Shown: positions 2,226 to 36,669 of the stretch, piece by piece
Layout of the letters: each line of letters starts with the position of its first letter
How positions within the stretch are numbered: the first letter of the stretch is position 1
Origin: a virus
Reading direction: 5' to 3' (one strand)
DNA: 64,000 nt
Virus record (IMG/VR): IMGVR_UViG_3300015262_000004
Span: 1-64,000 of that record
Made by a program: the position numbers and the translations under genes
Notes under the pieces: model-generated
Databases searched by the model: none
What the model saw: only the letters and a program-made list of their open reading frames with translations
What the model was told of the DNA's origin: nothing

Positions 2226-2306
2226 TGATGCAACTTACGCAAGTTACATACGTTGCGTAACTGACTTAACTTACACAACTTACTTACCTTCCTTAACTTG
2301 CGTAAC
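2226..2306. repeat. 9-bp tandem repeat array A (downstream of the partition operon)
   Basis: Nine consecutive 9-mers in strict register: TGATGCAAC, TTACGCAAG, TTACATACG, TTGCGTAAC, TGACTTAAC, TTACACAAC, TTACTTACC, TTCCTTAAC, TTGCGTAAC. The array begins inside the 3' end of the ribbon-helix-helix gene, where it encodes V-T-Q-V, and ends at the start of the next gene. It is a candidate centromere-like site for the adjacent ParA/RHH pair (inference). Confidence 0.85.
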
Positions 2307-2621
2307 CTCATTGCCGCTGACCTCAGCCAGCAGCGCGATCACCTGGTCTGCGTCCATGCGTTGCAAGGCTCTGACACCGGCGCGCACCACGTCGCTACGG
2401 CATACCTTGAAGGTGCGCGGAGCCAGTACGAGCTGGTCGATCTCGGCGTTCATCTCATCAGTCAGAGAGAAGGTGGTGCGCTTGAACACCGCAACCGACG
2501 GCTTTGCACCGACCGCGTAGTTCGTCGCGGCACCGGACGCGAAGGCCTTTATTTGATCCTCGGTCGCGTGCTGCTGTACCGACTTACCACCGGGCGCCAA
2601 GCCCCCTAATGATGCTTTCAT
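2280..2621 (-). CDS. Ribbon-helix-helix DNA-binding protein, putative partition adaptor
   Basis: Encodes 113 aa from the ATG at 2621, which overlaps the parA stop codon (ATGA). After a flexible N-terminal 45 residues, KRTTFSLTDEMNAEIDQLV looks like the beta-strand and first helix of an RHH fold, and CRSDVVRAGVRALQRM like the second helix. RHH proteins encoded just downstream of small ParA ATPases act as centromere-binding adaptors in type Ib plasmid partition. The last codons are part of the 9-bp repeat array A, so this protein may bind DNA that includes the end of its own gene. Binding to the 9-bp units is inference. A purely transcriptional repressor role is also possible. Confidence 0.8.
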   Translation of the reverse strand: MKASLGGLAPGGKSVQQHATEDQIKAFASGAATNYAVGAKPSVAVFKRTTFSLTDEMNAEIDQLVLAPRTFKVCRSDVVRAGVRALQRMDADQVIALLAEVSGNEVTQVKEGK

Positions 2622-3310
2622 GCTTGTGCTCCAACGCGTTGTAGTGCTGCGTGTATCGATGGTTCATTTGCCCACAGCTCATGCACCATGGCCGTGGCAT
2701 CCTCGATCGCCTTCGGGTCGGTGAATTCCCACACGCTCGAACCGTCTTCGTCCGCATCGTCGTATGCCTGGCGGTCGAACAACACGTTGTCGAGCGTGGG
2801 TATGCCCCAGGCCCTGATGGTGTCCTTCGCCGTGAGGATCCGCGATACACGGTTCGGCAGACTCGGGCACTGGTTCACCAGCGCGCGGACTTTCAGCCCC
2901 GGGTTGAGTGCCTGAGCCAGGTTCACCACCTCGACCACCTTCGGCAACGTCTTGAGGTCGCGGCGCTTCGGACGGAACGGCAATACCATGTAGTCCGCCA
3001 CGGCCATGGAATGGCGCAGGGCAACCGAGTCGGATGCACCGACGTCGATAATGATGTGGTCATAGCGCTTCTTGAAATCGTTGAGCGGAGTGCTGATCTC
3101 ACCACGCAAGATGGCGCACGGTACCGACACGCCTTTGCCGCCGGCTTCGATGAACGACACCCGCTCGGCTGCCCAGTCGCTGCTGGTCAGCTGTGGATCC
3201 GCGTCGATTAACAGGACGTCGAAGCCCAGCATTCTCAGTATGACGGCCAGCGTCTGGGCTACGGTGCTCTTGCCCGTGCCTCCCTTGATGTTCCCGACTA
3301 AGAGGATCAT
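2618..3310 (-). CDS. parA: ParA-family partition ATPase (type Ib-like)
   Basis: Encodes 230 aa from the ATG at 3310. The deviant Walker A motif KGGTGKST (residues 9-16, signature Lys9) and Walker A' YDHIIIDVGASDS near residue 85 identify the ParA/MinD superfamily. There is no N-terminal DNA-binding extension, so it matches the short plasmid type Ib ParA rather than the P1 type. Members pattern over the nucleoid and move DNA bound by a partner protein, here probably the RHH protein encoded next. The operon lies between 9-bp repeat arrays A and B, and B occupies its promoter region, so B may serve as both operator and centromere. In a phage this suggests plasmid-like maintenance. A role in positioning DNA during lytic growth cannot be excluded. 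Confidence 0.92.
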   Translation of the reverse strand: MILLVGNIKGGTGKSTVAQTLAVILRMLGFDVLLIDADPQLTSSDWAAERVSFIEAGGKGVSVPCAILRGEISTPLNDFKKRYDHIIIDVGASDSVALRHSMAVADYMVLPFRPKRRDLKTLPKVVEVVNLAQALNPGLKVRALVNQCPSLPNRVSRILTAKDTIRAWGIPTLDNVLFDRQAYDDADEDGSSVWEFTDPKAIEDATAMVHELWANEPSIHAALQRVGAQA

Positions 3311-3435
3311 GTGCGTACCTTGTGTAAGTTGCGTCAGTTGTGTCAGTTACATAAGTTACGCACGTTATGTAACTTATGGCTGTGCTGTAGCTATACAAGT
3401 TACCTCACTTACATAAGCTGTGCAATTACTATACA
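3311..3435. repeat. 9-bp tandem repeat array B (upstream of parA)
   Basis: Successive 9-mers start directly at the parA start codon: GTGCGTACC, TTGTGTAAG, TTGCGTCAG, TTGTGTCAG, TTACATAAG, TTACGCACG, TTATGTAAC, TTATGGCTG. After a degenerate stretch and a 1-nt phase slip come TTACCTCAC and TTACATAAG (3400-3417). The units match arrays A, C and D. The region must also contain the parA promoter, which fits an autoregulated centromere (inference). Confidence 0.85.
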
Positions 3436-4842: not shown

Positions 4843-5268
4843 TTACTCGGCGGGCGCGGGCGTTCTCCACGATATAACGGTGTCTTTACCGTACTGGCCG
4901 ATCCACTCCTTTACTTCTTTTTTCAGGATGTTCGCAGCGCGAACCACCTCACCCGTGTGCGGGTTCTTGAAGGCGTACCAGACAGTGTTCGGGCCAGCCT
5001 TCTTTGACTTGCCGGGGATCAGGTTGCCGTGTTCGTCTCTCGGCCGGGTGACAGCCTTCTTACCCCGCACGACGATCTGAAAGCTCGGGTCGACAGTCTG
5101 CACGGCTTCGTGAATGGTCTTGCCGTGGGTCTTCAACAGCTCACGCAACTCGGACTCAAAGGCCAGCTCAGCCTTGAGTTGTGGGTTGGCTTGCAGCTCT
5201 TGAATCTCTTGTTCGAAAGCCTTCATCTGCGCTTGCAGCTCGCGCATTTTTACTAGGGGGTTCGTCAT
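4843..5268 (-). CDS. MvaT/H-NS-like xenogeneic silencer homologue
   Basis: Encodes 141 aa. Residues 1-60 form a charged coiled-coil oligomerisation segment (MTNPLVKMRELQAQMKAFEQ and onward). Residues 97-134 read WYAFKNPHTGEVVRAANILK followed by KEVKEWIGQYGKDTVISW, which matches the MvaT/MvaU DNA-binding domain (typical pattern: K-N-P-H-T-G-E, then K-x-L-K-x-W-x-x-x-Y-G, then V-x-S-W). These proteins coat AT-rich foreign DNA in Pseudomonas and repress it. A phage copy could silence its own or competing elements, mix with host MvaT filaments, or counter host silencing. The loop differs from the host consensus (AANILKK in place of a Gly-Gly-Asn type), so binding preference may differ. Confidence 0.85.
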   Translation of the reverse strand: MTNPLVKMRELQAQMKAFEQEIQELQANPQLKAELAFESELRELLKTHGKTIHEAVQTVDPSFQIVVRGKKAVTRPRDEHGNLIPGKSKKAGPNTVWYAFKNPHTGEVVRAANILKKEVKEWIGQYGKDTVISWRTPAPAE

Positions 5269-9471: not shown

Positions 9472-9487
9472 AGTTTCTCTCCACAAG

Positions 9488-9532
9488 GTGTGTAAGTTGC
9501 GTAACGTATGTAAGTTACGCAACGGGTGTATT
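9488..9532. repeat. 9-bp tandem repeat array C
   Basis: In register: GTGTGTAAG, TTGCGTAAC, GTATGTAAG, TTACGCAAC, then the degenerate GGGTGTATT. These are the same units as the arrays beside parA. It occupies the gap between the HicB-like gene (9531-9803) and the gene at 9181-9471. A second binding region for the partition/regulatory protein is inferred. Confidence 0.75.
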
Positions 9533-11865: not shown

Positions 11866-12058
11866 GGGTGAAACCTCCAAGGTTGTCGCGCGGGCATCAT
11901 AAAGCCCGTTGCCAGTATAAGGCCGCTATGGTACGTCGTCCAATAGTGGACACAGTTGGATCCAAGGGAGACATATTGCTTATCTGGCGCCAGTTTCCTA
12001 GCGCTAAACCACCTAGGCGCTAGGTTAGTGGGTGCTAATCGGCAACAGTTCCCGGCGA

Positions 12059-12073
12059 TCCCTACTGTAGGGA
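12059..12073. repeat. Dispersed hairpin palindrome, copy 8
   Basis: Core TCCCTACTGTAGGGA only (15 bp), in the gene-free block. Confidence 0.9.
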
Positions 12074-12324
12074 CGCAGAACGCGCACTAAGATTTAGTGC
12101 GACACGGCGAACGCTAGGTTAGTGGTTAATTGTGACGCTTAACCCACTCGGGGAGACGTAAGCGAGCGCTTAACCGGTAGACATCAGTAGACAGTCTGCG
12201 CCTTACGCGGTGGACGTGTCTACTCCGTGTGTCAAGTGTACGCGTCTACTGTTTAGCGCTCTGGCTAGGCTGCGGGGTAAAGTGGGGTAATTTGTCCACT
12301 GTGCAAGGCCTTAAAGGTGCACAG

Positions 12325-12620
12325 ATGTAAGGTGCTAGGCGGCGATATGTAAAGAGTGCGGCAACCTCTTACATCGGTTCTAGGCAATGAATACAGGGCT
12401 AAATGTAACGATGTAATAAATGTAAGAGTTGCCGAGGGTAGACGTATTAGGGAACGGGTTGGCTAGGGGGACTAAGCAGCTTAGCGGGCGCCGTTGCTTC
12501 GTGGCTGTGCACCGTTAAGCCTTATGTGTCTACTCTTTAAGGTTACATTTATTACATTTTAACATCTGGCCCCGTGTTTGCTGGGTGAAAGTCCATGTAA
12601 AGGCCTAATTGGCTTTACAT
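12325..12620. repeat. Cluster of ATGTAA hexamers (origin-like iterons)
   Basis: ATGTAA at 12325, 12347, 12403, 12411, 12420 and 12595, and TTACAT at 12369, 12543, 12552 and 12615. Three copies at 12403-12425 are spaced 8-9 bp. An imperfect 13-bp inverted repeat (12361-12374 with 12420-12432) encloses them. ATGTAAAG/CTTTACAT forms another inverted repeat at 12595-12620. The segment is AT-richer than the genome. It may bind an initiator or the primase-helicase (inference). Confidence 0.6.
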
Positions 12621-12719
12621 AATAGTGGCTTAACCCCCGGCCACGCTGGGCCAAACGTTACAATGTCCACTTGTCCACCACGTACAGGGCTGCGCCGGGC
12701 CTAGTGGCGACGTTCGGTG

Positions 12720-12756: not shown

Positions 12757-13085
12757 CAACGCGTTGGGGCGACGTCGCGCCGTAGTGTGTGGGTCCGCAC
12801 TGGGCAACGTGTTGATGTCGTCCCTAGGCCACGCAGAGCCCCGGCAACGCGTCGCTGCTGCGTCACCCTGTGCCGTCGTGGGTTCACCCCTGTGCAACGC
12901 GTTGCCCGCGCCCCAAGCCTGCGCAGCCACTAGGCAACGCGTTGCAGCGCGCTAGGCCCGCAGGAACGAAGAAGCCCGGCACTAGGCCGGGCTTGGTACT
13001 CCGTGCAACGTGTTAGGCAGCGTCGGACTCTGGCACGTCGTCACCCAGCTCGGTTACCTCCTCGACTTCGTCGGCCAACGCGTTG
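12757..13085. repeat. Cluster of CAACGCGTTG-type palindromes
   Basis: Copies or close variants (CAACGTGTTG, CAACGCGTCG, CAACGTGTTA) begin at 12757, 12805, 12845, 12895, 12935, 13006 and 13076, with 40-71 bp spacing. The same 10-mer occurs singly at 2632, 6436, 7297, 10540, 52886 and 61151. The density in non-coding DNA suggests a binding site. The ligand is unknown. Confidence 0.65.
12972..12994 (-). terminator. Rho-independent terminator
   Basis: AAGCCCGGC/GCCGGGCTT, a 9-bp stem with a 5-nt loop. On the minus strand it is followed by the pyrimidine run CTTCTTCGTTCC. It lies just downstream of the gene at 13013-13681. The tail is like that of the terminator at 21423-21452. Confidence 0.8.
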
Positions 13086-30663: not shown

Positions 30664-32916
30664 ATGCCGGTAATTACGAAAGAACTACTCGATCGTGCCA
30701 ACGAGCTGCAGTTGGCAGCGCAGCAAAAGATCGCCGGCGAACGTGAGGCGGCTGCAGCTGAGGCTGAGGCCAGCCGGTCGAACACCTGGGGGGAAGCCCT
30801 TGGCAACCTTGGCCCGCAGGCACTGTCGGGGGCGGTGAGCGTGGCGCAGGCAGGCTACGGCCTCGCTAACCTGGCCTCGCTTGGGTTGCTCGATCGCGCC
30901 ACGGGGTTCTCTCAGAACTTCGACGAAACGCAACAGATCCTGGGGGGCATGCAGTCGGCCCCGACCCAGCGTGCAGCGCAGAACGTTAGCAAGTCGTTCA
31001 AGGATGACGGCATCCTGGCAGGCTTGGGAACCGCGATCACCAGCCCGGCGTTCCTGCAGCAGCAGGTCGTTCAAACGATCCCGTCGATGATCCCTGTGGG
31101 AGCGGCCGCACGCTTTGCCGGCGGTATCGCTGCTGAGGCGGGCGTTGCGCGCGGGCTCGGTCTGGCGGCTGCGCGACAGGAAGCGGCACACGCCGCAGAA
31201 AAGGCGGTGCTGTTGACCACCGGTGGCCAGATCGGTGGCCAGACCAACGTCGACGCGATCAACGCCATTCGCCAGGCCGGCGGCAGTGAGAACCAGCAGC
31301 AGCTGGGTGGTCTGGGTGCGGGCGTGGCTTCGGGCTTAGCCGGTGCGGTGCTTGGCAAGTTGACCGGCGCAGCGCGGTTAGAAAGCGCCGCTGCCAACGC
31401 GTTGCCAGGTGGTGTGCCGGCGGCCGCAGTGAACTACGGCCTGGTACCAACCATAGTGGGCGGTGCCGCACGGGAACTGACTGAGGAATCGGCGCAGTCC
31501 GCGACCCAGCAGCTGGCTACGAACGCCGTCACCCCGGGCAAGGATCTGTTTGACGGTGTTGGGCAACAGGCTGCGGTGGGTGGTTTGCTCGGTGGCCTCA
31601 TGGGCGGCGCGATGGGCGGCGTCATCTCGGCCAGTACCCCACGTTCGAGCGATGCCACCCCTCTGGGGCAACGGCTGCGCGCCATGATGGGCAAGAAGAA
31701 CAGCGAGTTGGACGAACCGCTGCAGCCGAATGCGATCGGGCCGGCCCCTACAGCCGACGTCGAGGAGATGGCCCCCGAGGAAATCAACCTGGCAGACACG
31801 CCGTTGCCTGGTGGTTTGCCCGCAGACGCCCCGCTGCCCCGCCGTACGCTCTACGACATCACCGGTCGATCGCCGACGCAGGGCCTACGGCCGCCTGTTG
31901 GTGGCTACGACGTCGAGGAAGTGCCACCCGCCACGCGTACTGGTTTGCTCGGCGTGCTCGATCTGCAGCGCAACAAGGGCGTTCTGGGTGGTGGTGACCT
32001 GGCTGGTGGCGAGCTGGATTGGCAGGGTGCTTTCCCTGCCCCGCTCCCACAGGTGCCCCGGGCTGCAGACGCCCCGTCTGAGGTGGACCAGCAGCAAGGT
32101 GCGCTCGACTTCAACGCGCCGATCCCGACGTGGAAACAGTTTCTGGCAAAAGACCTGGATGTTAAGCCGGGCGCCCTCACCCGCAACAACAAGGTGTGGG
32201 GACAGTTCCTGGACGCCGCTGAGAAGGCCGGGGTCACGCCTGGCAGTACCGACGGTGAGGCGTTCATGCGCCAGATCGCGCCGTCGTTGGTTACCAACCC
32301 GGCCACCGCGCCGCTGTTCGCTGCGCGCATGGCCGAAAAGTACGGTCCACAAGTTACGCCAGTTACGCCAGTTGCATCAGTTACGCCAGTTACGCCAGTT
32401 GCATCAGTTACGCCAGTTGCGCCAGTTGCGCCAGTTGCACCAGTTACACCAGTTACACCAGTTACGCCAGTTACACCAGTTACGCCAGTTACACCAGTTA
32501 CGCCAGTTACGCCAGAGGCCCAACGCACTCCGCAGCAAAAGGCTGCGTATGTGACTGCGCTGCGTGAACAGTTGACCGAGGCGCAGGGGCAGGTACAGGC
32601 CACCCGCCAGGCCCGCGACCTGGATTCGTCCAGGGAGTGGCGCCTGCAGGAACTGATGACCCAGCGTGAACTGCGGGCGGCCACAGGGCGGCCAACGGCG
32701 GGGATGGATAAGCTCATCGCCAAGCAGCGCATCTACATAGATGACATCGCGGCCGGCCGTGCGGCGATCGCGCAGGCGCAAGCCACGCCGGCACCGGTGC
32801 AACCGGCTACACCAGGTTCGCCGGCCGTTGGCCAAGTGACACCCGCGACTTTGGCGGGCGTGGATAAACAGATCGCCAGCAACATGCGGTTCGACCCAAG
32901 CATCAGCCGTGCGTAA
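30664..32916 (+). CDS. Internal virion/polyvalent protein, N-terminal part (750 aa), contains translated 9-bp repeats
   Basis: It begins with a coiled coil ([20 protein letters not shown]), then Gly/Ala-rich membrane-active-looking segments ([18 protein letters not shown]). A Val-Thr-Pro repeat occupies residues 563-617, followed by a charged coiled coil. The repeat is the translation of eighteen 9-bp units related to the partition arrays. The frame ends in TAA at 32914-32916, but the same frame stays open beyond it into the next gene, so the two may once have been, or may still be expressed as, one protein of about 2,000 aa. Probably ejected with the DNA (inference). Confidence 0.75.
32354..32515. 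repeat. 9-bp tandem repeat array D, inside a coding sequence
   Basis: Eighteen perfect-register units of TTACGCCAG or variants (TTGCATCAG, TTGCGCCAG, TTGCACCAG, TTACACCAG), 162 bp in total. It reads in frame as (V-T/A-P/S)18. The units match arrays A-C beside and near parA. Confidence 0.95.
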
Positions 32917-32943
32917 GCGGCGGCTGATGCGTACACCGAGACA

Positions 32944-35900
32944 ATGATGGATGCGCTGGATTCCGATGCGCTTGATCAGACCTTTATCGACATCAAGTCG
33001 CACCCGGACTGGGCAAAGCTGAGCAAGCCGCAGCAGGACCAGGTGGTTCAAGACTTCGAAGCCCGCTACGACGCCCTGGAATCGCCGGGCAAATTCGACC
33101 GGGCTACCGAGGAGGTGGCCAAGCCGATCCACATCACCGACTTCCACCAGGGTATCGCGGCGGCAAACCGCAACCGTGGGGCCGGTGACGCGCAGGTGAT
33201 CGGCCTTGAAGACGTGGCGGAATTTGAGAACTTGACCCAACAGGCGGCACCGCCCGATGCCCGGGGCGTGTTCACCGACGGCAAAATCTACTTGATCCGC
33301 GAAAACCTCAGCAGCCCTGAGCAGATGGCAATCACCCTGGCGCACGAACGTGGTCACCATGGGTTGGCCGCGCTGCTGGGTGATCGTATGCCGGCCGTGC
33401 TCAACAGGTTGTGGACCAACCCGGCGACCCGTACCCGGATCAAGGCCAAGATGGTTGCCTTGCAGGCGGGTGAGGTCGACGTGGAGAACGGCAGCCTGCG
33501 TAAGTTGGCCGCTGAGGAAGTGTTGGCCGACATGTTCGCCGCTGGTGAGAAGGTCAACGGCGATATTCTCACCAAGGCCCGCAACGCTATCGAGCAGACG
33601 TTTGCCACGCTGCTGGGGGTGGGCAAACTGCGCATGAACAACAATGACGTGGATTCGATCCTGCGTGACGTCTCGGCGGTGCTCAAGGGCACCAGTGCTG
33701 GGGTGCTGCGCCAGGGCGAACCAATCGCGCGTGATCTGCCTGGCATGATGGCCGACCCGACGCCCTGGACAACGGGCGATGCTCGATTCAGCAGGGCGAT
33801 CGCGGACACCGACGAAATCATTCGGGCGGCCACGGCCGAGCAAGACGGTACCCGCCGTAACCTGGCTGACGTCATGGTCGATGTGGGTAAAGCCAGCATG
33901 GCCAAGGTGCGGGGGCTGGGCACGGCCACCGTTCGGGACAAGGTCGCCTCGGGACTGCTTAACGCGGTGCCGTTGAACCAGCTGGCCAGCTTGTACGACA
34001 AGCTGATGGAAGGCCGGTTGGGGAACTTTGCCCGTCTGAAACGTGCGCAAGAGTCGATGCACAACAAGTTGCTGACGCAGGAAAAGGATCTGCAGCTGGG
34101 TGACAAAACCTACAAGGTGTCGCCGCAGTCACTGTCAAAACAATGGGTGAGTTTTGCCCACCGCAACGAGGCCAAGGCCGCCGCGCTGAGTCAGCTGCAG
34201 CAGGAAGCGACCATGTACCGCCTCTGGCCGGGCCGTAAGTTCGAGGCGCAGAGCAAGGTCGGGTACGAGGCGGCCAGCTTTACCGAGGATGAACGCCGCG
34301 CGGCATCAGAGCGTGTCAACAAGTTGTGGGATGCCATGGGTACCGAAGCCCAGGAGATTTTCAACAAGTCCCAGGCCCTGTACGACCGCGCCTGGAACAC
34401 CCGGTTCGAGACGCTGCGCAAGGTGCTGGCTGAGAAAAGCAAGCCGGGCGACATGACCATGGATGAGTACGCCAAAACGCCCGCCTTCAAGCAGGCCTTT
34501 GGCAACATGATCGACACCGCGCTTGCCAAAATGCGCCAAGGCCCGTACTCGCCACTACAACGGTACGGCGACTACATGCTGACGGTGCGGGATAAGGCGG
34601 GTCAAGTCGCGTACTTCCATGGTTTCGACACCATCGAGGAACGGAACCTGGCCGAGCGGGATCTGCGCCAGGGCGAGTTCGCCGGCACGGATTATGTGAT
34701 CGCTCCCACTAAGCGCATGGAAACCACCTGGAGCCAGATGGGGCTCAACCAGCAGGCGATCGATCAGCTTGAGAACGTCGCGACCACCCTGTTTCCGTCT
34801 ACTAACTCCGAGTCAGGGGAGACGAAGACGGCGCGGGATCTGCGCCAGGCCCTGGTCGAGGCTTACCTGCAGTCGCTCCCGCAGCATTCATTCATGCAGC
34901 ACGCGAACCAGCGCAAGAACATCAAGGGTGGTTCGATCGATGCGATGCGCGGGTTCAACGACTACATGGGCAAGTCGAGCCGCAACATCGCCGGCCTGGA
35001 ATACAACCACCAGATCAGCGAGGCGTTGACCGGCCTCAGCACGTTCGTGACAGAGAAGGCCCAAGGCAAACTCGGCGAAGTGGACGGCGACACGTTGACC
35101 AAGATGAACCGGGTGGTCAACGCCGTCAGGGCGCAGCACGAAGCGTCGATCAAGTATGAGCGCTCGCCCGTGGCTGACATGATCAGTAGCGCAGGCTTTC
35201 TGATGTTCATGTCCTCACCCAGCCAGCTGTTCGTCAACGCCATGCAGGTACCGATGGTGACCCTGCCGCGCTTGGCCGGTGCCTACGGCAACACGTCGTC
35301 GATTCAGGCGCTCAGGGGCGCGTTGGGTGCCTTCGCGAAATCCCGGGGCGACCTGCGTGGCGACAAGTCGGTACTGGCACCAGGCAGCTGGGAACGCCGC
35401 GTGCTCGATACGCTGTACGAGCGGGGCATCCTGGACTTTACCCTGGCGCACGACATGAACGGGCTGGCCAATGGCGAGGGGTCGGCCATGTCCGGCCACT
35501 GGCGCAAGGTCATGGAAGCGGCCGGGTTCTTTATGCACCGCTCCGAAGTGTTCAACCGTCAGGTCACAGCCTTGGCAGCGGCCCGCCTGGAAGCGCAAAA
35601 GAGCGGTGTCAACACCGGGGCAATGACACAGGAGCAGGTCGACAGGCTGGCCGATTCCGTCGAAGACTCGGTGATCAGCACCCAGTTCGACTACAGCCAA
35701 TCGAACAAGGCCAAGCTGATGCAAGGCCCGTGGCGCAAGGTGATTTTCCAGTTCCAACAGTACCGCGTAAACATGTTGGCCATGATGGCCAAGGACGTCC
35801 GCGACAGCTTCACCGGTACCAAGGAGGAGAAGCAGACCGCCCGCCGTGCGTTGTCCTGGATGTTGGGGATGCAGCTGGCCCTCACCGGCGCGGCCGGCAC

Positions 35901-36669
35901 CGTGTTAGCTCCGATCGCCTTCGGCATCGCGGATCTGTTCCGTGACGATGATGACCTGTTGGATAGCCGCAGTGAATTCGTCCGGTCGGTACCGCAGTGG
36001 CTGGCCCACGGTGTGTTGTCCGGGGTACTGGATACGACCCGGATTGGCGCCGATGGACTGTTGTCAGCCGGCGGTGCTTATGCGCCCAAGGACGCGACGG
36101 CCAAGGAGAAGTTCCAGTATTACCTGCTGGCCAACATCGGCCCGTGGGCCGGCCTGGGTGCCAACGCTGCCACCGGCCTGGAGAAAGCCATGCAGGGCGA
36201 CCACGTTGGGGCGGTCAAGAACCTGGCCCCGGCCGGCGTACGCGACGTTTACCGCGCTTTGTTCGAGAGCCAGCAGGGGGCGAAGGACACTAGACAGGTT
36301 GTCTACTTCGAGCCTAACCTTTGGGACACAATGTCCACCGCGATGGGCCTAAAAAGTGGACGCCGTCGCGATGCCGAGGAGCTGCGTGGGGCTGCGTTCG
36401 AAGCGAACTTGCATACCCAGACACTCAAAGGCCGCAAGGTCGGTCGCCTGGCCCTTGGCTTCGCGACCGGTGATCCTGAAATGATCGCCACCGCACAGGA
36501 TGAGATACGCGAATGGAACAGCCGATACCCAGATATGGCTATTTCCGGCACCGCCGTACGACAAGCCACCTTGAACCGCGTGCGATCGCAGATGAACGCC
36601 GACCAGACCGGCGTGGCGTCTTCGCGGCCGCTCGGCCCATCCACTCGGGATGCCATAGGTCTGGATTGA
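32944..36669 (+). CDS. Large ejected polyvalent protein with zinc-metallopeptidase domain (1241 aa)
   Basis: ATG at 32944 without a convincing ribosome-binding site, in the same frame as the previous gene and 27 nt after its stop. Residues 130-196 have a zincin motif: TLAHERGHHG (HEXXH at 134-138) and, downstream, LAAEEVLADM supplying the likely third ligand. The centre is helical (KEDLQLGDKTYKVSPQSLSK), and near residue 950-1000 hydrophobic segments occur (RALSWMLGMQLALTGAAGTV). This matches large polyvalent or internal proteins that are injected into the host. The protease could act on virion or host proteins. Catalytic activity is inferred. Confidence 0.8.
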   Translation: MMDALDSDALDQTFIDIKSHPDWAKLSKPQQDQVVQDFEARYDALESPGKFDRATEEVAKPIHITDFHQGIAAANRNRGAGDAQVIGLEDVAEFENLTQQAAPPDARGVFTDGKIYLIRENLSSPEQMAITLAHERGHHGLAALLGDRMPAVLNRLWTNPATRTRIKAKMVALQAGEVDVENGSLRKLAAEEVLADMFAAGEKVNGDILTKARNAIEQTFATLLGVGKLRMNNNDVDSILRDVSAVLKGTSAGVLRQGEPIARDLPGMMADPTPWTTGDARFSRAIADTDEIIRAATAEQDGTRRNLADVMVDVGKASMAKVRGLGTATVRDKVASGLLNAVPLNQLASLYDKLMEGRLGNFARLKRAQESMHNKLLTQEKDLQLGDKTYKVSPQSLSKQWVSFAHRNEAKAAALSQLQQEATMYRLWPGRKFEAQSKVGYEAASFTEDERRAASERVNKLWDAMGTEAQEIFNKSQALYDRAWNTRFETLRKVLAEKSKPGDMTMDEYAKTPAFKQAFGNMIDTALAKMRQGPYSPLQRYGDYMLTVRDKAGQVAYFHGFDTIEERNLAERDLRQGEFAGTDYVIAPTKRMETTWSQMGLNQQAIDQLENVATTLFPSTNSESGETKTARDLRQALVEAYLQSLPQHSFMQHANQRKNIKGGSIDAMRGFNDYMGKSSRNIAGLEYNHQISEALTGLSTFVTEKAQGKLGEVDGDTLTKMNRVVNAVRAQHEASIKYERSPVADMISSAGFLMFMSSPSQLFVNAMQVPMVTLPRLAGAYGNTSSIQALRGALGAFAKSRGDLRGDKSVLAPGSWERRVLDTLYERGILDFTLAHDMNGLANGEGSAMSGHWRKVMEAAGFFMHRSEVFNRQVTALAAARLEAQKSGVNTGAMTQEQVDRLADSVEDSVISTQFDYSQSNKAKLMQGPWRKVIFQFQQYRVNMLAMMAKDVRDSFTGTKEEKQTARRALSWMLGMQLALTGAAGTVLAPIAFGIADLFRDDDDLLDSRSEFVRSVPQWLAHGVLSGVLDTTRIGADGLLSAGGAYAPKDATAKEKFQYYLLANIGPWAGLGANAATGLEKAMQGDHVGAVKNLAPAGVRDVYRALFESQQGAKDTRQVVYFEPNLWDTMSTAMGLKSGRRRDAEELRGAAFEANLHTQTLKGRKVGRLALGFATGDPEMIATAQDEIREWNSRYPDMAISGTAVRQATLNRVRSQMNADQTGVASSRPLGPSTRDAIGLD

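What the first reader, a model, noticed from the sequence alone, without database searches (positions are those of the whole stretch)
32354..32515. A partition-type 9-bp repeat is translated inside a virion gene
Eighteen 9-bp units with the same consensus as the arrays around parA sit in frame in the 750-aa virion protein gene, coding for V-T/A-P/S repeats. If the RHH protein binds these units, one DNA element would act as both a binding array (partition, packaging or silencing) and a protein repeat. The shared register, unit length and variant set across four loci argue against chance low complexity.
Basis: partly seen in the sequence, partly recalled or inferred. Interest (0 to 1): 0.9.

Follow-up and report, generated by a model that had tools for sequence, protein, structure and literature searches.

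The report
Coding repeat resembling partition-site DNA
A phage gene for an internal virion protein contains 18 copies of a 9-letter DNA word that closely resembles the phage's own plasmid-style partition sites; comparison with relatives suggests it is mainly a flexible protein linker that grew from one resident copy, but binding by the partition protein is not excluded and is easy to test.

Summary
The array is real: 18 in-frame 9-bp units (GTT-RCR-YCA, Val-Thr/Ala-Pro/Ser) at 32353-32514. The arrays near parA are also real. RHH-ParA relatives on Pseudomonas and Azotobacter plasmids and in three phage contigs are likewise flanked by 9-bp arrays, so A and B are very probably centromere/operator arrays; C, upstream of another gene, shares the motif. 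Array D's resemblance to them is better than chance: a matrix built only from plasmid arrays picks D, A, B and C above everything else in the window. GTTACGCCA is the best scoring of the 64 ways to encode Val-Thr-Pro (p about 0.005, post hoc).

Its origin looks local. Relatives without a detectable ParA carry unrelated tandem repeats (PVPAVE, EPAAV), or unrepeated Pro/Ala/Val-rich sequence, in the same linker. The closest relative has exactly one GTTACGCCA (V-T-P-E) aligned with the last unit of D. Similar repeats occur in many unrelated viral contigs. No other genome scanned with this partition module has an array inside a distant gene.

Best reading: a coding minisatellite in a disordered linker whose similarity to the partition iteron is coincidental or, at most, secondarily exploited. 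Side result: an in-frame TAA at 32914 splits a giant gene that is continuous in relatives.

The parts
32353..32514 (+). Array D: 18 tandem 9-bp units coding (Val-Thr/Ala-Pro/Ser)18, linker repeat
30664..32916 (+). 750-aa ORF, N-terminal part of a giant internal virion protein gene (PHROG 2206, 'virion RNA polymerase', 2.9e-12)
   Evidence: homologues in L010, L011, L013
32914..32916 (+). in-frame TAA that separates the two ORFs; the homologous gene is open across this point in relatives
32944..36669 (+). 1241-aa ORF, C-terminal part of the same gene (DarB-like / LPD39-containing family)
2618..3310 (-). parA-type ATPase gene
   Evidence: PHROG 164, 1.5e-40; about 50% identity to plasmid ParA-type proteins
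2280..2621 (-). RHH (ribbon-helix-helix) centromere-binding protein gene; its last codons lie in array A
   Evidence: plasmid homologues; RHH_1 in 3 of 6 family members, not in the window protein itself; alignment
2226..2306 (-). Array A: 9-bp iterons overlapping the 3' end of the RHH gene
3316..3432 (-). Array B: 9-bp iterons upstream of parA
9487..9530 (-). Array C: about four 9-bp iterons just upstream of the likely start of a small minus-strand gene

Best explanation
Array D is a coding minisatellite. A resident Val-Thr-Pro codon triplet (GTT ACG CCA) in a disordered linker of a giant internal virion protein was amplified in tandem by slippage or unequal recombination. The resulting V-T-P linker joins an N-terminal domain to the rest of the protein, and its length and exact sequence are weakly constrained. 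Arrays A and B are the real partition/operator iterons of the RHH-ParA module, and C is probably a further site of the same protein. The resemblance of D to them is mostly coincidental; any RHH binding at D would be a by-product. Shown here: position, frame, linker variability, single unit in the closest relative, arrays beside par genes in plasmids. Inferred: slippage, disorder of the linker, lack of function in partition.
For: Relatives have different tandem repeats or none at the same linker after the LAEKY motif. The closest relative, L163, has one GTTACGCCAGAA (VTPE), which MAFFT aligned to the last unit of D, 135 codons against 143 before the shared downstream homology. It is the only GTTACGCCA in that 27-kb contig. 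ParA was not found in the related virus records searched or in phage Rollin, and RHH not in eleven of those records; array clusters were absent or at background in the relatives scanned. GTTRCRYCA in three tandem copies hits at least 120 viral contigs; in 71 of 80 examined the longest open frame is on the opposite strand (70 of them in the Gly-Ala/Val-Thr frame), in 9 in the Val-x-Pro frame. In four plasmids or phage-plasmids and three phage contigs with this module, strong array matches occur only near the par genes, apart from one unrelated-looking GTGTGTAATAAACGG repeat in L238.
Against: The unit ranks first of 64 Val-Thr-Pro codings under own, plasmid-only and combined matrices, with a codon-usage probability of 0.0045. 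GTT and CCA are minor codons here (11.5% and 14.4%). D matches A at 17/18 with 0 of 3000 null recodings as good. The changes inside D (at least four) all fall at the three positions where the iteron itself is degenerate: about 0.012 if all nine positions are equally free, about 0.06 if only mild coding changes are allowed (own arithmetic). These tests are post hoc.
Confidence: 0.62

Rival explanations
1. Exaptation: a resident VTP triplet that happened to resemble the iteron was amplified and kept because the RHH protein binds it, so D is an additional centromere-like or late-operon silencing array as well as a linker.
For: D clusters score like A and B with an independent matrix; variation in D falls only at iteron-degenerate positions; the exact D unit GTTGCGCCA occurs in two natural plasmid par arrays.
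Against: No other genome scanned with the module has an array in a distant gene; D lacks the strongest sites (10.4 bits at best against 11-14) and has no near-palindromic 10-mers, whereas A, B and C have 2-3 each; linker repeats arise without any detected par module in relatives.
Confidence: 0.24
2. Seeding: a piece of array A (GTTGCATCAGTGACGCCA) was copied into the linker by ectopic recombination or template switching and then expanded as a protein repeat.
For: 17/18 match to A with 0 of 3000 null recodings as good.
Against: A single GTTACGCCA already lies at the aligned position in L163, whose known 27-kb fragment lacks the module; the commonest D unit GTTACGCCA does not occur in A-C.
Confidence: 0.1
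3. Assembly artefact that changes the copy number in a metagenome-type contig.
For: The array (162 bp) is longer than many short reads, and the record is a virus contig of untold provenance.
Against: Units carry distinct variants in a non-trivial order and the reading frame is kept.
Confidence: 0.04

Closest known systems
Type Ib-like ParA-RHH partition modules (ParF-ParG of TP228, delta-omega of pSM19035; reviewed in PMC5016525)
   Same: Small RHH protein encoded next to a Walker ParA ATPase, with arrays of short repeats as operator/centromere; applies to arrays A and B
   Different: Here the repeat is 9 bp, TTRYGYAA-like, and lies on both sides of the genes; array D lies 29 kb away inside a late gene and has no shown role
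Prophage-plasmid N15 partition sites IR1-4 (PMC7205306; their scattered location away from sop is from own knowledge)
   Same: A phage-plasmid with several separate centromere sites, the model D would follow if functional
   Different: N15 uses single inverted repeats bound by a ParB-type SopB, not tandem translated units
Iterons inside the lambda O gene (own knowledge)
   Same: Tandem protein-binding repeats inside a coding sequence
   Different: Replication origin bound by the protein that the gene itself encodes
Amino-acid tandem repeats in Borg elements (PMC9879509)
   Same: Recently formed in-frame DNA tandem repeats that create intrinsically disordered protein stretches
   Different: Not phages, and no resemblance to partition sites reported in the passages read

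Membership tests
RHH-ParA partition iteron array (for A, B, C) | Short tandem repeats beside parA and the RHH gene | tested here: met
   A and B flank the pair; C is a smaller array 6 kb away with the same motif
RHH-ParA partition iteron array (for A, B, C) | Same arrangement and motif in independent relatives of the module | tested here: met
   9-bp arrays beside parA/RHH in P. mendocina, A. chroococcum (two), P. fluorescens R124, P. atacamensis, and beside RHH in phage contigs L239/L240, more weakly in L238
RHH-ParA partition iteron array (for A, B, C) | Binding by the RHH protein and a role in segregation | not testable with these tools
   needs EMSA and a plasmid stability assay
RHH-ParA partition iteron array (for D) | Unit matches the iteron matrix built without D | tested here: met
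   clusters 82.1 and 70.0 against background at most 33.0
RHH-ParA partition iteron array (for D) | Location beside par genes or in a regulatory region | tested here: not met
   29 kb from parA, inside a late virion gene
RHH-ParA partition iteron array (for D) | Silent-site conservation of the 9-mer in relatives | tested here: inconclusive
   no relative with both the module and the repeat was found; relatives in which the module was not found do not keep the DNA array
Coding tandem repeat in a disordered linker | Unit length divisible by three, frame kept, disorder-promoting residues | tested here: met
   9-bp units, V/T/A/P/S only; disorder itself was not computed
Coding tandem repeat in a disordered linker | Same position variable or independently repeated in homologues | tested here: met
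   about eight PVPAVE-type units in L153/L011, EPAAV units in L013, unrepeated in L010, L161, L163

The most novel reading that the evidence does not exclude
The RHH partition protein of this phage binds the 18 translated units in the virion gene, so that one DNA stretch serves as a distal centromere or late-operon silencing array in a plasmid state and as a structural linker in the virion protein in the lytic state.
Probability: 0.2. Interest if true: 0.78.

Novelty: new member of a known kind. Interest (0 to 1): 0.4.

Why it matters
If D is bound, it would be a clear case of a centromere-like array written in frame into a structural gene, with a switch between plasmid and lytic life built into one sequence. 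Even if not, the case shows how a 9-bp coding minisatellite can match a partition iteron at p below 0.01. It also documents a family of RHH-ParA modules with 9-bp arrays next to the genes, shared by Pseudomonas-group plasmids and phages.

Tried and rejected
Megablast of 22 kb of the late region against phages and plasmids: no match. Direct searches for relatives of the 750-aa protein, ParA and RHH in viral contigs with single queries found nothing; alignments as queries worked better. Two genome-contig scans found no relative. A search of solved structures with the RHH family gave only chance-level matches. I first thought that position 8 (always C in D, usually A in iterons) excluded D as an iteron, but in the register CTGGCGTAA on the other strand D fits the matrix well, so that argument was dropped. 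I considered testing silent-site drift within D, but about four mutational events are too few. The 9-mer pattern scan of viral contigs was used only as a base rate because the pattern preselects the variants.

Full report
Observation. The window lies in a virus record of 64,559 bases. Eighteen 9-bp units lie head to tail at 32353-32514 on the + strand and are read in frame as Val-Thr/Ala-Pro/Ser in ORF 30664-32916. Unit counts are GTTACGCCA 9, GTTACACCA 4, GTTGCATCA 2, GTTGCGCCA 2 and GTTGCACCA 1. Three further stretches with a 9-bp period exist: A at about 2226-2306, overlapping the end of the RHH gene; B at about 3316-3432, upstream of parA; and C at about 9487-9530, just upstream of the likely start of a small minus-strand gene.

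What A-C are. The ParA-type protein (PHROG 164) has relatives on many plasmids, the best listed being about 50% identical. The RHH protein has relatives mainly on Pseudomonas plasmids. Three of six members of the RHH alignment match Pfam RHH_1; the window protein itself does not reach the listing threshold, and the alignment shows the shared core. In P. mendocina, P. fluorescens R124, P. atacamensis and two A. chroococcum plasmids the same pair of genes has arrays with 9-bp spacing upstream and downstream. Phage contigs L239 and L240, which carry RHH relatives, have an array of AGTGCGTAA units beside the RHH gene; L238 has weaker matches. A and B are therefore very probably operator/centromere arrays of a type Ib-like partition module; C has the same motif. 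Binding itself is not shown.

Is the resemblance of D more than chance? A matrix trained only on plasmid arrays gives, for the best 90-bp clusters of the window, A 94.0, D 82.1 and 70.0, B 79.7, C 42.5, and 33.0 for the next best place. About 0.1-0.2% of random 9-mers, taken as tandem arrays in any register and strand, score as high as the D unit. Among the 64 ways to encode Val-Thr-Pro, GTTACGCCA scores first under three matrices, and by phage codon usage a coding at least as good has probability 0.0045. D shares 17 of 18 bases with A, against 15 outside the arrays, and none of 3000 codon-usage recodings reached 17. These are post hoc tests on the most striking repeat of the window, so the real strength is lower, but the match is not trivial. 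Against this, D has no site above 10.4 bits while A-C have sites of 11-14 bits, and D has no 10-mer with four of five dyad pairs while A, B and C have two or three each.

Base rate. In 80 that were read, the longest open frame was on the opposite strand in 71 (70 of them in the frame that reads Gly-Ala/Val-Thr, a collagen-like Gly-X-Y pattern) and in the Val-x-Pro frame in 9. So this DNA repeat arises often as a coding repeat. Whether those contigs carry a partition module was not checked.

Relatives of the virion gene. The 750-aa and 1241-aa ORFs are one gene by homology. Phage Rollin has a single CDS, and the contigs L010, L153, L160-L162 and L163 are open across the place where the window has TAA at 32914. 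After a conserved LAEKY-type motif comes a linker. In L153/L011 it holds about eight 18-bp PVPAVE-type units, in L013 short EPAAV units, in L160 [18 protein letters not shown] in other codons, and in L010, L161, L163 and L164 no comparable repeat. ParA was not detected in the related virus records searched (58.7, 63.9, 60.6 and 60.1 kb among them) or in Rollin, and the RHH profile not in eleven of those records. Most of these records are linear and may be fragments, so absence is not proven for each. No array cluster like A-D was found in the sequences scanned.

The closest relative. L163 (62% identity in the downstream part) has one GTT ACG CCA GAA, read V-T-P-E, and MAFFT aligned it with the last unit of D followed by GAG. 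The distance to the shared downstream homology is 135 codons, against 143 in the window. It is the only GTTACGCCA in that 27-kb contig. Codons at identical residues agree in 44% of cases between the two genes, so three kept codons in a row is unremarkable under descent, whereas an unrelated single 9-mer falling at this place in frame would be unlikely (below 1% by rough count). This favours growth of D from a resident unit over import from A.

Weighing. Under import from A, the single unit in L163 is the coincidence. Independent linker repeats in relatives without a detected module, and the absence of in-gene arrays in the seven other replicons with the module that were scanned (two plasmids only in part), favour the coding reading. 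Exaptation, in which a chance-resembling unit was amplified or kept because RHH binds it, remains open: the variable positions of D are exactly the degenerate positions of the iteron (about 0.01-0.06), but only about four changes are involved.

Verdict. Observation confirmed; dual function not shown. Best explanation: coding minisatellite in a disordered linker, confidence 0.62. The binding test is simple and would settle it.

Noticed in passing
window 32914-32916: In-frame TAA splits a giant internal virion protein gene (30664-36669) that is continuous in Rollin and related contigs; an in-frame ATG follows at 32944. Could be a true split, readthrough, a mutation or a sequence error.
   Followed up: partly
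window 2280-2306: The C-terminal residues of the RHH protein (VTQVKEGK) are encoded by array A in the same reading register as D; most plasmid homologues end before this extension.
   Followed up: partly
window 4843-5268 (-): Small protein with an MvaT-type xenogeneic silencer DNA-binding domain (PF22055, 3.8e-08), a Pseudomonas-type H-NS analogue on the phage.
   Followed up: no
window, whole, clustered at 12757-13078: AACGCGTT (often CAACGCGTTG) palindromes are strongly over-represented, several of them in the stretch near 12.7-13.1 kb; the palindrome-like word GTCCCTAC...GTAGGGAC also recurs.
   Followed up: no
window 11900-12660: Stretch free of ORFs of 60 aa or more, with many TGTAA/TTACA-type short repeats; candidate replication or control region.
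   Followed up: no
L157 (NZ_CP070504.1): A record called a P. atacamensis plasmid carries phage tail and baseplate genes next to the same RHH-ParA module; it looks like a phage-plasmid.
   Followed up: no
L239 10207-10300, L240 7318-7410: Perfect 9-bp direct repeats AGTGCGTAA directly beside an RHH gene in phage contigs, a cleaner version of the same array type.
   Followed up: partly
L238 15859-15950: Array of GTGTGTAATAAACGG-type units 5.7 kb from the RHH gene in a phage contig, with partial likeness to the iteron.
   Followed up: no
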